From: Sphingopyxis terrae subsp. terrae NBRC 15098
GTDB lineage: Bacteria; Pseudomonadota; Alphaproteobacteria; Sphingomonadales; Sphingomonadaceae
Direction: 5' to 3'
NCBI RefSeq assembly: GCF_001610975.1
Contig: NZ_CP013342.1
Coordinates: 1,302,001-1,366,000 of the forward strand
Length of the DNA stretch: 64,000 nucleotides
In this document: in pieces, positions 18,242-44,360 of the stretch
Layout of the letters: every line of letters starts with the position of its first letter
How positions within the stretch are numbered: the stretch's first letter is position 1
The notes under the pieces: generated by a model
Database searches by the model: none
The model's input: only the letters and a program-made list of their open reading frames with translations
Told to the model about the DNA's origin: nothing
Program-made: the position numbers and the translations under genes

Positions 18242-18269
18242 GATACGCACCCCAAAGCTCTACCCCTCA
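18242..18269 (-). promoter_or_regulatory. ECF-type promoter motif upstream of TonB receptor 1
   Basis: On the minus strand: TGAGGGG, 15 nt, CGTATC. One of seven copies with identical spacing in this window. It lies about 127 nt upstream of the receptor start. Confidence 0.55.
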
Positions 18270-18400
18270 TCAATTTTGAAATTTTTTCCGGCCTGAGCCT
18301 TTTCGCGCAAGGAGCCGGCGGGCCCCTCCCTCGGCTTGCTTATGAAATGACATGATTAAGTGGGTCGGCACAGCTTGGGGGCGCGACCGACTTGAGCCGC

Positions 18401-19153
18401 TCAATGCGAAAGTATCTGTTCGAGAAAGGTCCGTGCGCGTTCGCTTTTCGGCGCGGCGAAAAAATCTGCCGGCCTTGCGTCTTCGATGATCTGGCCCTGA
18501 TCCATGAAAAGCATGCGATCGGCCGCCTCGCGCGCGAATCCCATTTCGTGCGTCACGCACACCATCGTCCGTCCTTCGCCGGCAAGGGACGTCATCACAT
18601 CGAGTACCTCCTTGATCATCTCGGGATCGAGCGCCGATGTCGGCTCGTCGAAGAGAAGAATCCGGGGCTCCATCGCCAGAGCGCGGGCTATCGCGGCCCG
18701 CTGTTGCTGCCCTCCCGAGAGCTGCCCCGGATATTTGCCCGCCTGGTCGCCAATCCTCACCTTGTCCAAATAGGATATGGCGCGCGCCTCCGCCTCCGGA
18801 AGAGACAAGCCGCCGAGCAGGACGGGCGCGAGGGTGCAATTCTCCAGCACCGTCTTGTGCGGGAACAGATTGAACTGCTGAAAAACCATGCCAATGGCGC
18901 GGAGCGCCGCAACGGCCTCTCGCGACGCGTCGGTTATCCTGGTTCCCTCGATCAGGACGGCACCGGAGTCGGGCACCTCGAGCCTGTTCATGCAGCGAAT
19001 GAGCGTCGATTTGCCGGAGCCTGAAGGGCCGCAAATCACGATCCGCTCGCGCGGGGCGATTTCGAGGTCGATCGAGCGGAGGGCATGATAGGCGCCATAA
19101 TATTTGTCGACCTGCCGCAAGCTGACGGCCGCGTGGCCCGAGGCATCGGTCAT
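18401..19153 (-). CDS. Amino-acid ABC transporter ATP-binding protein
   Basis: 250 residues. Walker A GPSGSGKST (42-50), Q-loop near FQQFNLFP, signature LSGGQ (145-149), Walker B LLFDEP (166-171) and switch His in THEMGFA. The pattern matches the polar amino-acid ATPases (AapP/GlnQ/HisP). It is the last gene of the importer operon and overlaps the lyase gene by ATGA, which fixes the start at 19153; the longer upstream ORF is a shadow of the lyase gene. Confidence 0.92.
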   Translation of the reverse strand: MTDASGHAAVSLRQVDKYYGAYHALRSIDLEIAPRERIVICGPSGSGKSTLIRCMNRLEVPDSGAVLIEGTRITDASREAVAALRAIGMVFQQFNLFPHKTVLENCTLAPVLLGGLSLPEAEARAISYLDKVRIGDQAGKYPGQLSGGQQQRAAIARALAMEPRILLFDEPTSALDPEMIKEVLDVMTSLAGEGRTMVCVTHEMGFAREAADRMLFMDQGQIIEDARPADFFAAPKSERARTFLEQILSH

Positions 19154-41566: not shown

Positions 41567-41873
41567 GGCAGCCGACGACGCGTAGGCCTCCGAAAGCAGT
41601 TGGTCTTTGCATCCTCGCGGCGTCACAGGGAAAGCCGGGCATCGAAATCGCGCGCGCTACCGACGTTCAGGATGGGACTAGCCCGTATCTGTTCGTGCCA
41701 TCTTACTGCCCGGCTCATCGTGCCATCAGCAGGGCCGTTCAAGTAACGGCGCCGGTGAGAACAGGGACATATCATGTCCTGCGTTCAGAGGAAGTATTCC
41801 CCCCGGGCGCAAGCGCCCAGGGGGACCGACGACCGTAGGGGAGTCGCCGGGGGACCTCGCAGGACGAGGAACC
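41567..41873. other. Non-coding gap with two hairpins
   Basis: About 300 nt without a gene. It holds AGGGACAT-ATC-ATGTCCT (about 41763-41780) and a stronger hairpin at 41799-41824 (CCCCC-GGGCGC, AA, GCGCCC-A-GGGGG). The second may be a bidirectional terminator between the converging nuclease-like and TonB receptor genes, although it lacks a T-run. Confidence 0.4.
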
Positions 41874-43988
41874 TCAGAAAAAGTAGCGCAGCTGCAGTCC
41901 ATACTGGCGCGGCTCGCCGTAGATGTAGAGCGGAAGAGTAGGGTTCGAGACACCCGTCGCGTCCGTCCCGATCGTACTATAGCTCACATAGCGCTCGTTG
42001 GTGAGATTTCGGCCATAAAGCGCAATTTCCCACGCTTCGCTCGCCGGCTGCCATGTGACACGCCCATTTATAAGGGTCGTGGCGTTTCCGGAAAAAAGCG
42101 GATTGTTGCTGGGCTTGAAAAAGACGCTGTCGCGCCAGGAGATATCGGTCCGTAATGTCAGCATTCCGCCGCCCAGGGAGGCCTTATATTCTCCGCCGAA
42201 AGTGATGTTCCACTTCGGCGCGTTCGGCAGCCGCTTGCCCTTGAGGCTTGCGCCGACGTCGTCAAAATAGACATCGTAGCGCGCATCGAGATAAGCGATC
42301 GTGGATGTAAGCGTCAGGCGATCGAACGGCCGTGCCATCAGTTCCGCTTCAACGCCCTTGATCGTCGCCTTGCCGGCGTTGGTGGTACTGGCAACGCCAT
42401 TATTATACTCGACCACCTGAAGATTGGTGTAATCATAATAGAAGGCGGAAAAATTAGCTCGAAGCCGGCGATCGAGGAGCGTCGACTTCAGGCCGACTTC
42501 GTAGCTCCAGACATACTCCGGGAGGAAAGGCCGCCCGTCTCCCAGCTGGAATCCACCCGATTTGAACCCGCGGGTTGCCGACGCATAAGCCATGACGTCA
42601 TCGGCAAGGTCGTAATCGATCCCAATTTTCGGAGTCCAGGCGGTCCAGGATGATTTGGGCTGACCGGCATCGACCTGATTTCCGTTCAGCAGGACACGAT
42701 ATCCGAAATCCTTTTTTTCGTATGAGTATCGAAGCCCTCCGGTCAATCGCAGGCGGTCGATGAGTTCGTAGCTTGCTTGTCCGAAGAGCGCGAATGCATT
42801 CGTCGTATTGTTTTCCGGGATCGCGAGCCGACGACCCGGTTCGATGATCCGTATTTCGTCGTTGCCCTTTTCATTCAGATAGAATGCTCCGACGATCCAG
42901 CGCAGCTTGTCCGCATCGTTGTTGAGAAGTTGGAACTCTTGCGTGAAACTGCGGGAACGTTCGTAAAATTCGATATCGCGGAGGAAGAGGTCAGTCGAGT
43001 CAACGTCGAGCGCCTGGACGACCTTGCTCTTGCGCAGCGCCGTAATCGAGCGGAGCGTGACCGGGCCGCCGTCCCAGTTCATGGTCGAGGACACGCCCCA
43101 GGCATCGACATCGTAACGCGGCAGGCGGTCGAGTGCGGCCTCTTTGTCATTGGCCGGGATCGTCGCCCCCGCATCGACGAAGCCTTGCGGATAAAAGGGC
43201 CGAACAGACCGCGCGCCGGTCTCGCGATCACGGCTGGCATCCGCCCGCAACACGATCTCAAGACGGTCGCTCGCGTCAATCGCAAGCGTCAGTCGTCCAG
43301 CGAGATTATCTTCGTTTTGGTATCGCCGTCCCGAGACGACGTCGCGGTAGATGCCGTCGCGCTGGTTGGCAAGCAAGGTGAGGCGGCCTCGGACGCCCGC
43401 TCCAAGCGGTCCAGAAATCGTGCCGCTCAGCGAGCGCTTCTCGTAATTTCCGACGGTGAGCCCCAGCGCGCCAGTCAAATCCTCCGTAGGCATTTTGGAA
43501 ATGATGTTGAGTGTGCCGCCGGCGGAGTTGCGACCGAAGAGAACGCCTTGCGGTCCGCGCAGCACCTCGATGCGTTCGACGTCGAACAAATCCTGATAGC
43601 TTGTGGTCGGGCGCGAGATGTAGACGCCGTCATAATGGACTGTCGTGCTGGGGTCGGTCGCAACGCCGAACGCCGAGGTGCCAATTCCACGAATATTGAT
43701 GATCGCCATGGAATCGTTGGTGATCGACACGCCCGGCACAAAAAATTGGAGGTCTTCGACGTTTGATATGCCCGTTGCCGTAAGCGCCTCGCCGGTCATC
43801 GCTGTCACCGAGACGGGAACGGACTGCAGATTTTCCTCGCGCTTCTCCGCCGTTACGATGATCTCGGCGAGGCCGTCCGACTGGGCTTCCTGAGCCTGCG
43901 CGGGAAACGCGACCGCCACCGCAATCGCCGCCATCGAGCTTCGCTGCATTGCGCGCTTCGTCGACGAATAACAGTATAATTTGTTCAT
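41874..43988 (-). CDS. TonB-dependent receptor 3
   Basis: 704 residues: signal peptide (AVAFPAQAQ), plug with EIIVTAEKREENLQSVPVSV, INIRGIGTSAFG and RGPQGVLFGRNSAGGTLNI, and a barrel ending LRYFF. This is the common sphingomonad class often assigned to iron chelates, vitamins or aromatics; ligand unknown. An ECF-type promoter motif at 44130-44157 faces this gene, and a decayed copD fragment lies beyond it, so it may belong to the copper response. Confidence 0.88.
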   Translation of the reverse strand: MNKLYCYSSTKRAMQRSSMAAIAVAVAFPAQAQEAQSDGLAEIIVTAEKREENLQSVPVSVTAMTGEALTATGISNVEDLQFFVPGVSITNDSMAIINIRGIGTSAFGVATDPSTTVHYDGVYISRPTTSYQDLFDVERIEVLRGPQGVLFGRNSAGGTLNIISKMPTEDLTGALGLTVGNYEKRSLSGTISGPLGAGVRGRLTLLANQRDGIYRDVVSGRRYQNEDNLAGRLTLAIDASDRLEIVLRADASRDRETGARSVRPFYPQGFVDAGATIPANDKEAALDRLPRYDVDAWGVSSTMNWDGGPVTLRSITALRKSKVVQALDVDSTDLFLRDIEFYERSRSFTQEFQLLNNDADKLRWIVGAFYLNEKGNDEIRIIEPGRRLAIPENNTTNAFALFGQASYELIDRLRLTGGLRYSYEKKDFGYRVLLNGNQVDAGQPKSSWTAWTPKIGIDYDLADDVMAYASATRGFKSGGFQLGDGRPFLPEYVWSYEVGLKSTLLDRRLRANFSAFYYDYTNLQVVEYNNGVASTTNAGKATIKGVEAELMARPFDRLTLTSTIAYLDARYDVYFDDVGASLKGKRLPNAPKWNITFGGEYKASLGGGMLTLRTDISWRDSVFFKPSNNPLFSGNATTLINGRVTWQPASEAWEIALYGRNLTNERYVSYSTIGTDATGVSNPTLPLYIYGEPRQYGLQLRYFF

Positions 43989-44360
43989 TATGCTTCCCCT
44001 GTTTCGAAGAACTGCCCTTTCGCGCAGCCCAAATGAGTTTCGGGGAAGTCGAGGACAAAAACATGCATGCCCGGAAACCGCTGCTTACGGCTTCCGAGTT
44101 CAAGCACCCAACATCCCCTACTGACATTGATTACGCACCAGAACGACTCATCCCTCAAAAATGGTTCGGGCGACGTAAAACCATTGGAATTGGGCTCCCC
44201 GATTTGTTCAGATCGCCAGGATGAAGTTGATCCGGAACGCCCAAAGGCTCCTACCTTCATCCAGAAGCGGCGCTTTTCGCTTCTGCCCCTCGTCGGAGCC
44301 TTGGTCGGCGCCGTGCACGTGACGCAATCGCTCGCTTGACCCTATGGTCAGGTCTTCCCC
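43989..44360. other. Leader of TonB receptor 3 and unassigned spacer
   Basis: About 370 nt. The left 170 nt form the leader between the ECF-type motif and the receptor start. The right 200 nt hold nothing I can support as a gene; short ORFs there have no recognisable content. Confidence 0.4.
44130..44157 (-). promoter_or_regulatory. ECF-type promoter motif upstream of TonB receptor 3
   Basis: On the minus strand: TGAGGGA, 15 nt, CGTAAT, about 142 nt upstream of the receptor start. Same spacing as the other copies; the base after CGTA differs from most. Confidence 0.5.

What the first reader, a model, noticed from the sequence alone, without database searches (positions are those of the whole stretch)
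18242..44157. Seven-copy bipartite promoter (TGAGGG-N15-CGTA) defining a copper ECF sigma regulon
Sites at 18242-18269(-), 31823-31850(-), 33222-33249(-), 33275-33302(+), 36251-36278(+), 39378-39405(+) and 44130-44157(-) all read (T/C)(G/A)AGGG(A/C/G), exactly 15 nt, CGTA. Each lies upstream of and points to a gene: TonB receptor 1, copA, the CnrYXH-like operon, copC, the copper ATPase, cytochrome c and TonB receptor 3. Identical spacing in seven non-coding regions is hard to explain by chance. ECF factors recognise such bipartite boxes. That the factor is the one at 31902-32486 is inference. I do not recognise this consensus as a described one.
Basis: partly seen in the sequence, partly recalled or inferred. 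Interest (0 to 1): 0.9.

Follow-up and report, generated by a model that had tools for sequence, protein, structure and literature searches.

The report
CnrH-type sigma promoters run copper genes
In this Sphingopyxis-like bacterium seven evenly built DNA boxes stand in front of copper-resistance and neighbouring genes and are very likely the start signals for one sigma factor, predicted to be set free by a metal sensor in the periplasm; the same boxes recur beside the same kind of sigma factor in many related bacteria, so the target genes of this switch could be read from sequence.

Summary
In detail: seven YRAGGG-N16-CGTA sites against 0.19 expected. In the whole genome the stricter TGAGGG-N15-GCGTAT occurs 7 times, all in two copper clusters: four of the window's seven sites and three in a second cluster with a 71%-identical sigma gene. 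A pattern-free search upstream of the sigma operon finds this box in 40 of 42 non-redundant loci, and the spacer is 16 nt in 278 matches against at most 3 at any other length tried. Genomes of the order with a close sigma carry on average 2.5 strict sites, those without one 0.23. The sigma, its sensor and the gene order are of the nickel system CnrYXH, and the two CnrH promoters of Cupriavidus plasmid pMOL28 show the same boxes with a 17-nt spacer. Which metal triggers it is not settled: the sensor keeps all five CnrX metal ligands. New variant of a known kind.

The parts
18244..18269 (-). promoter box, TGAGGG-N16-CGTAT, before TonB receptor 1 (start 18115)
   Evidence: motif upstream of 19 of 43 relatives that hold a matching receptor gene
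31825..31850 (-). promoter box before copA (start 31788)
   Evidence: 75 of 77 relatives
33224..33249 (-). promoter box before the anti-sigma/CnrX/sigma operon (start 33189): predicted autoregulation
   Evidence: 79 of 79 relatives
33275..33300 (+). promoter box before copC (start 33333)
   Evidence: 67 of 69 relatives
36250..36275 (+). promoter box, CAAGGG form, before the copper P-type ATPase; likely ATG 36395, the listed TTG at 36269 lies within the box
   Evidence: 29 of 42 relatives
39378..39403 (+). promoter box, CAAGGG form, before cytochrome c (start 39474)
   Evidence: 12 of 13 relatives
44132..44157 (-). promoter box, CGTAA form, before TonB receptor 3 (start 43988)
   Evidence: same place (141-143 nt before the start) in 23 of 23 receptors at least 91% identical, the window's own among them; absent from one 76%-identical and five 34-37%-identical receptors
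31902..32486 (-). ECF sigma factor, CnrH type
   Evidence: Pfam sigma-70 regions 2 and 4; best solved relative CnrH 4cxf, E 9.8e-31
32483..32920 (-). periplasmic metal sensor, CnrX type
   Evidence: PF13801; NccX/CnrX are the best solved relatives; five ligands kept
32923..33189 (-). predicted membrane anti-sigma factor (88 aa, a hydrophobic segment, tail VPSTLLD, mostly APSTLLD in relatives)
   Evidence: no family hit; no profile match to CnrY
29947..31788 (-). copA, multicopper oxidase
   Evidence: TIGR01480 812 bits
28739..30271 (-). ORF of copB, outer-membrane copper protein; Pfam covers residues 305-510 only, the true start is probably near the copA stop (29947)
   Evidence: PF05275
33333..33716 (+). 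copC
   Evidence: PF04234, NF033814
33723..34691 (+). copD
   Evidence: PF05425
36395..38716 (+). copper-translocating P-type ATPase
   Evidence: TIGR01511 599 bits, cut-off 397
39474..40103 (+). c-type cytochrome
   Evidence: PF13442
41874..43988 (-). TonB-dependent receptor 3
   Evidence: PF00593, PF07715
15410..18115 (-). TonB-dependent receptor 1, followed by two PepSY membrane proteins (13963-15398)

Best explanation
The seven sites are very likely promoters (-35 YRAGGG, 16-nt spacer, -10 CGTAT) read by the CnrH-type ECF sigma factor encoded at 31902-32486. The sigma is predicted to be held at the inner membrane by the small anti-sigma protein at 32923-33189 and released when the CnrX-type sensor at 32483-32920 binds a metal in the periplasm (inferred from CnrYXH, not shown here). 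Freed sigma would then start transcription about 9 nt after CGTA at its own operon and at copAB, copCD, the copper ATPase, cytochrome c and TonB receptors 1 and 3. A second, 71%-identical sigma with the same gene order and boxes lies elsewhere in the genome, so the two regulons probably overlap. Shown by computation: the boxes, their spacer, positions, conservation and link to the sigma gene. Inferred: binding, induction, and copper as the signal.
For: Chance test. Strict motif 7 of 7 in the two cop clusters genome-wide. Pattern-free enumeration: the top word pair is GAGGG-N15-GCGT (tied with its shift GAGGG-N16-CGTA), 40 of 42 non-redundant regions, against 5-6 at most in 3 shuffles; the facing copy towards copC in 32 of 42. 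Spacer: 278 at 16 nt, 0-3 at each of twelve other lengths. Gene-wise presence: sigma operon 79 of 79, copA 75 of 77, copC 67 of 69, ATPase 29 of 42, cytochrome 12 of 13, receptor 1 19 of 43; negative genes copB 0 of 75, sigma 0 of 79, DUF305 0 of 32, DUF4440 0 of 29, methyltransferase 0 of 31, araC 0 of 28, PepSY 0 of 28, ORF 40265 1 of 15. Receptor 3: 23 of 23 close orthologues. 293 of 310 sites in 84 loci point on their own strand at a gene of this set. Genomes with a close sigma (E<1e-40) 85 of 96 with a strict site, mean 2.51; weaker sigma 32 of 50, mean 1.06; none 50 of 249, mean 0.23; backward control 0.04-0.06 in each. CnrH's own promoters on pMOL28 read CAAGGG-N17-CGTATA and CGAGGG-N17-CGTATA with 32 and 33 nt from CGTA to the start codon, as copC 32, anti-sigma 34 and copA 36 here; starts 24 and 25 nt upstream of cnrY and cnrC per PMC9045368 (passages) fall about 9 nt after CGTA.
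Against: No transcription data. The loose consensus alone is at chance level in the genome (19 against 23 backwards). 50 of 249 genomes without a sigma at the cut-off still hold a strict site, mean 0.23 against 0.056 backwards; one is a cut-off effect (G068 has a CnrX at E 3.7e-27), but G208 has copC/copA with two perfect facing boxes and no CnrH-like sigma in its draft (best E 4e-7). The box is missing before 13 of 42 ATPase and 24 of 43 receptor-1 matches, and before one 76%-identical receptor 3. The order-wide statistics ignore shared ancestry. The anti-sigma has no detectable sequence kinship to CnrY. Two loci mix spacers (L077, L203).
Confidence: 0.88

Rival explanations
1. The boxes are promoters of this sigma, but the signal is not copper: the sensor answers to nickel, cobalt or zinc, or to several divalent metals, and copper genes are one output.
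For: All five residues that bind metal in CnrX (H42, H46, E63, H119, M123; their role is recalled) are kept in 82-83 of 83 sequences; best solved relatives of the sensor are NccX and CnrX.
Against: copA lies beside 77 and copC beside 69 of the 80 loci, on plasmids as well; the promoters serve copper genes, and no nickel pump was seen among the genes examined (about 13.9-46 kb of the window; the rest was not annotated).
Confidence: 0.2
2. The box is the binding site of a transcription activator (such as the AraC-type regulator after copD, or a CopR-like protein) and not a promoter element.
For: An AraC-type gene (HTH at residues 427-501 of the ORF 33875-35413) lies in the cluster.
Against: The box is neither a palindrome nor a direct repeat; orientation and distance to the gene are narrow; araC is found with enough upstream DNA in only 28 of 80 loci while the box is in 79 of 79 sigma operons; the CnrH promoters share it.
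Confidence: 0.05
3. The second sigma (contig C7) or another of the 13 further ECF-like matches of the genome, not the one at 31902-32486, is the main reader of the window's boxes.
For: The C7 paralogue is 71% identical and has the same box at its four own promoters.
Against: Each of the two sigmas lies within its own box-bearing cluster; the other 13 ECF-like matches are 27-36% identical, and in the order the boxes go with the CnrH-type sigma.
Confidence: 0.1

Closest known systems
CnrYXH of Cupriavidus metallidurans (plasmid pMOL28)
   Same: Gene order small membrane protein - Metal_resist sensor - ECF sigma; CnrH and NccX/CnrX are the best solved relatives; sensor ligands kept; boxes CRAGGG...CGTATA at both known promoters; same distance from CGTA to the gene.
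   Different: Spacer 17 nt there, 16 here; targets there are the nickel/cobalt pump cnrCBAT, here copper genes and TonB receptors; no detectable sequence kinship of the anti-sigma proteins.
CorE of Myxococcus xanthus (copper ECF sigma; PMC3107203, passages read; also PMC10141476, passages)
   Same: An ECF sigma with a multicopper oxidase and P-type ATPases among its targets.
   Different: CorE is reported to work without a partner anti-sigma, through a cysteine-rich C-terminal domain; the sigma here ends shortly after region 4 and has partner genes.
SigAb of Acinetobacter baumannii (PMC12153292, passages read)
   Same: ECF sigma activated by copper stress; its small membrane anti-sigma is modelled like CnrY.
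   Different: Small direct regulon there; no CnrX-type sensor named in the passages read; the anti-sigma genes follow the sigma gene.
SigF of Caulobacter crescentus (PMC3511200, passages read)
   Same: Alphaproteobacterial metal-stress ECF sigma with two-box promoters.
   Different: Boxes GTAACC-N16-CGAA; chromium and cadmium stress.

Membership tests
CnrYXH | ECF sigma closest to CnrH | tested here: met
   4cxf (CnrH) E 9.8e-31, next SigW 3.1e-22 among solved structures
CnrYXH | CnrX-type periplasmic sensor with its metal ligands | tested here: met
   H42, E63, M123 in 83 of 83, H46 and H119 in 82 of 83
CnrYXH | Operon order Y-X-H | tested here: met
CnrYXH | CnrY-type anti-sigma | tested here: inconclusive
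   size and a hydrophobic segment fit, but hhalign against CnrY gives probability 0.2; kin to the Caulobacter plasmid protein, E 6.5e-8
CnrYXH | Promoter boxes of CnrH | tested here: met
   same boxes on pMOL28 and USMAA2-4, spacer 17 there against 16
CnrYXH | Control of a nickel/cobalt RND efflux pump | tested here: not met
   neighbours are copper genes; so a 'CnrH-type system', not a member of the nickel-resistance determinant
CnrYXH | Induction by nickel or cobalt | not testable with these tools
   needs a reporter
CorE | Cysteine-rich C-terminal domain | tested here: not met
   sequence ends 'LLAGTSASAEG' after region 4 (residues 130-181); its only cysteines are C8 and C86

The most novel reading that the evidence does not exclude
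The spacer between the boxes is a system-wide ruler that shifts for all promoters of a CnrH-type sigma together and can keep two such regulons in one cell apart. Of 55 non-redundant systems with at least two sites, 50 have only 16, 4 only 17 and 1 mixes. One genome (G704) holds a system with 17 at three sites beside one with 16, another (G956) one with 16 at three sites beside one with a single 17 site. Against a general rule: the two systems of the window's genome, and of G833, G900 and G969, all use 16, and linker length in the sigma does not track the spacer.
Probability: 0.3. Interest if true: 0.75.

Novelty: new variant of a known kind. Interest (0 to 1): 0.62.

Why it matters
It would give sphingomonads a copper switch that is neither CueR, CopRS nor CorE but the nickel-type CnrYXH device turned to copper, and a widespread one: 146 of 395 genomes of the order have a sigma match at E<=1e-25, 96 of them at E<1e-40, and it sits on plasmids of Sphingopyxis, Sphingobium, Novosphingobium and others. 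Because box and spacer are so strict, target genes, including TonB receptors of unknown cargo, can be listed from sequence. It also raises a testable question: how a sensor with the nickel/cobalt ligand set serves copper genes. My searches of the held library listed no paper that I could recognise as describing this motif or a CnrH-type copper regulon; I read passages of ten papers, none whole, and subscription papers are largely outside that library.

Tried and rejected
Loose consensus as a genome-wide test: rejected, it is no commoner than its reverse, so stricter forms were used. Mechanical ORFs as an inside/outside-gene test: rejected, they cover 8 of 8 outside sites and also 8 of 11 cluster sites. 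The eight loose matches outside the clusters are taken as chance; six have no ORF of 150 aa or more starting within 250 nt on their strand, two identical copies (L026) have one of 476 aa at 184 nt. CnrY kinship by profile: not found. Sigma linker length as cause of spacer 16 or 17: 39 residues in most 16-types but 37-45 overall, 41-42 in the 17-only types, so no clean link. Search for the motif string in papers: nothing. tRNAs in the window: none. No structure was predicted: sequence already placed the sigma and sensor, and complexes cannot be modelled here.

Caveats on counts: the 80 loci were chosen by their sigma and are redundant (42 non-redundant upstream regions; 63 non-redundant sigmas among the 146 loci); fixed columns of the motif follow from the way the sites were collected, so presence or absence is the fair measure. 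One search used block shuffles, three runs. In one search TonB1 and TonB2 queries hit the same receptor genes in part, and the receptor-3 row (0 of 4) rests on distant matches. and the first receptor-3 count (11 of 23) read only one strand of loci that are not turned to the match; one search puts this right (23 of 29; one further locus had too little upstream DNA). In one search five of 146 loci had no site in the places examined. In one search, 7 of 67 loci had none; it took 65 of the 67 places listed (for the other two no stretch was taken) plus two Caulobacter plasmids, and a wider -35 pattern than elsewhere.
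Full report
Observation. From YRAGGG to CGTA the spacer is 16 nt. In the whole genome (5.13 Mb, 26 contigs) the same loose pattern gives 19 matches, its reverse 23, so the consensus alone is not special; its placement is. Four more sites lie within 5 kb on contig C7 beside a sigma gene 71% identical to that of the window, in the same layout: two facing sites at the start of the anti-sigma operon, one before copA, one before a TonB receptor. 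The remaining eight are scattered over five other contigs; they lie inside mechanical ORFs, but so do 8 of the 11 cluster sites, so that test decides nothing. The strict form TGAGGG-N15-GCGTAT has seven matches, all in these two clusters, none backwards.

What the genes are. Pfam and NCBIfam name the sigma (31902-32486), a Metal_resist sensor (32483-32920), CopA, CopB, CopC, CopD, a copper P-type ATPase, a c-type cytochrome and TonB receptors. The nearest solved proteins are CnrH for the sigma and NccX/CnrX for the sensor. The 88-residue protein that opens the operon has no family hit; 48 distinct relatives have a hydrophobic segment (best 19-residue Kyte-Doolittle mean 1.5-2.1, from residue 41-51 on) and mostly a tail like LAPSTLLD. 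Homologue names place the host in or near Sphingopyxis.

Relatives. A scan of one genome per species gave 80 named loci. Counting five-letter/four-letter word pairs with gaps of 10-21 in the region upstream of the sigma operon, without telling the program the motif, gives GAGGG-N15-GCGT (the same as GAGGG-N16-CGTA) first, in 40 of 42 non-redundant loci. In 1.48 Mb of these loci YRAGGG-Nx-CGTAT has 278 matches at x=16 and 0 to 3 at each of x=10-15 and 17-22. Gene by gene the box is upstream of 79 of 79 sigma operons, 75 of 77 copA, 67 of 69 copC, 29 of 42 ATPase, 12 of 13 cytochrome and 19 of 43 receptor-1 genes, but of 0 of 75 copB and 0 of 79 sigma genes, which lie inside operons, of 0 of 32, 29, 31, 28 and 28 for DUF305, DUF4440, methyltransferase, araC and PepSY, and of 1 of 15 for ORF 40265. 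For receptor 3 the box is kept, 141-143 nt before the start, in 23 of 23 receptors at least 91% identical and absent from six more distant ones. A Sphingobium and a Novosphingobium plasmid have the same layout and boxes.

Co-occurrence. In 395 genomes of the order, 96 with a close sigma average 2.51 strict sites (85 with at least one), 50 with a weaker match 1.06 (32), 249 with none 0.23 (50); the reversed control is 0.04-0.06 throughout. Ancestry is not corrected for. Five loci of the order with a sigma only 36-38% identical keep the same box and the 16-nt spacer, two of them at 45-48% G+C against 63% in the window.

Link to CnrH. On pMOL28 the DNA before cnrY and cnrC reads CAAGGG-N17-CGTATA and CGAGGG-N17-CGTATA, with 32 and 33 nt between CGTA and the gene. 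PMC9045368 (passages read) reports starts 24 and 25 nt upstream of these genes and ascribes nickel-induced expression to CnrH; that puts the start about 9 nt after CGTA. In the window copC, the anti-sigma gene and copA have 32, 34 and 36 nt. I take this as the best hint that the boxes are -35 and -10 elements; no start has been mapped here.

Signal. CnrX binds nickel and cobalt through H42, H46, E63, H119 and M123 (recalled). These are kept in 82 or 83 of 83 sequences, although the neighbours are copper genes. So copper as inducer is likely from context, not shown.

Spacer. Over 146 loci, 133 have two or more sites and 131 of these use one spacer length; 55 non-redundant ones give 50 with 16, 4 with 17, 1 mixed. 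Seventeen is found in Cupriavidus (L122, L161), in one genome of the window's own family (L207), in a more distant genome of the phylum (L211) and in another family of the class (f12, unnamed; two named Caulobacter plasmids show the same boxes). In 67 loci of that family and those plasmids, 38 have two or more sites with 16 only, 2 with 17 only, 3 mix, and 24 have one site or none. Two genomes hold both kinds; at least four others (the window's own, G833, G900, G969) hold two of the same kind.

Against. G208 has two perfect facing boxes between copC and copA and no CnrH-like sigma at E<1e-7; 50 of 249 sigma-less genomes have a strict site; the receptor-3 box departs at the last base of the -10; 13 of 42 ATPase and 24 of 43 receptor-1 matches lack the box; CnrY kinship was not found. 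Known copper ECF sigmas in the papers seen are CorE and SigAb, built differently.

Verdict. The finding is real and the reading is right in essence: a CnrH-type sigma regulon over copper genes, with a predicted partner system. It is a new variant of a known kind.

Noticed in passing
L020 (contig C7:14000-33999), 7700-16900: Second copper cluster with paralogous anti-sigma, CnrX, sigma, copA, TonB receptor and PepSY-like membrane genes; its four sites carry the same box.
   Followed up: yes
32926-32955 and relatives: The predicted periplasmic tail of the anti-sigma recurs as LAPSTLLD in most relatives (LVPSTLLD here) and in the Caulobacter plasmid protein (LAPSTLLEG); it could be the docking peptide for the CnrX-type sensor.
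   Followed up: partly
18270-18289 and relatives: An A-rich stretch stands just upstream of the -35 box before TonB receptor 1 in nearly all listed relatives, like an UP element.
   Followed up: no
41874-43988: TonB receptor 3 is closest among solved structures to the pesticin receptor (4epa), E 1.3e-30; its cargo is unknown.
   Followed up: no
L157 (G208:C39), 6346 and 6425: Two perfect facing boxes between copC and copA in a genome where no CnrH-like sigma was found.
   Followed up: partly
L026 (C12), 3427-3452 and 14693-14718: The same 26-mer twice in opposite orientation, each 184 nt from a 476-aa ORF: likely a duplicated inverted element.
   Followed up: no
L162:7190 and several f12 loci: Systems with TGCGGG-N17-CGTATA before the anti-sigma gene: a -35 variant that often, not always, goes with the 17-nt spacer.
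   Followed up: partly
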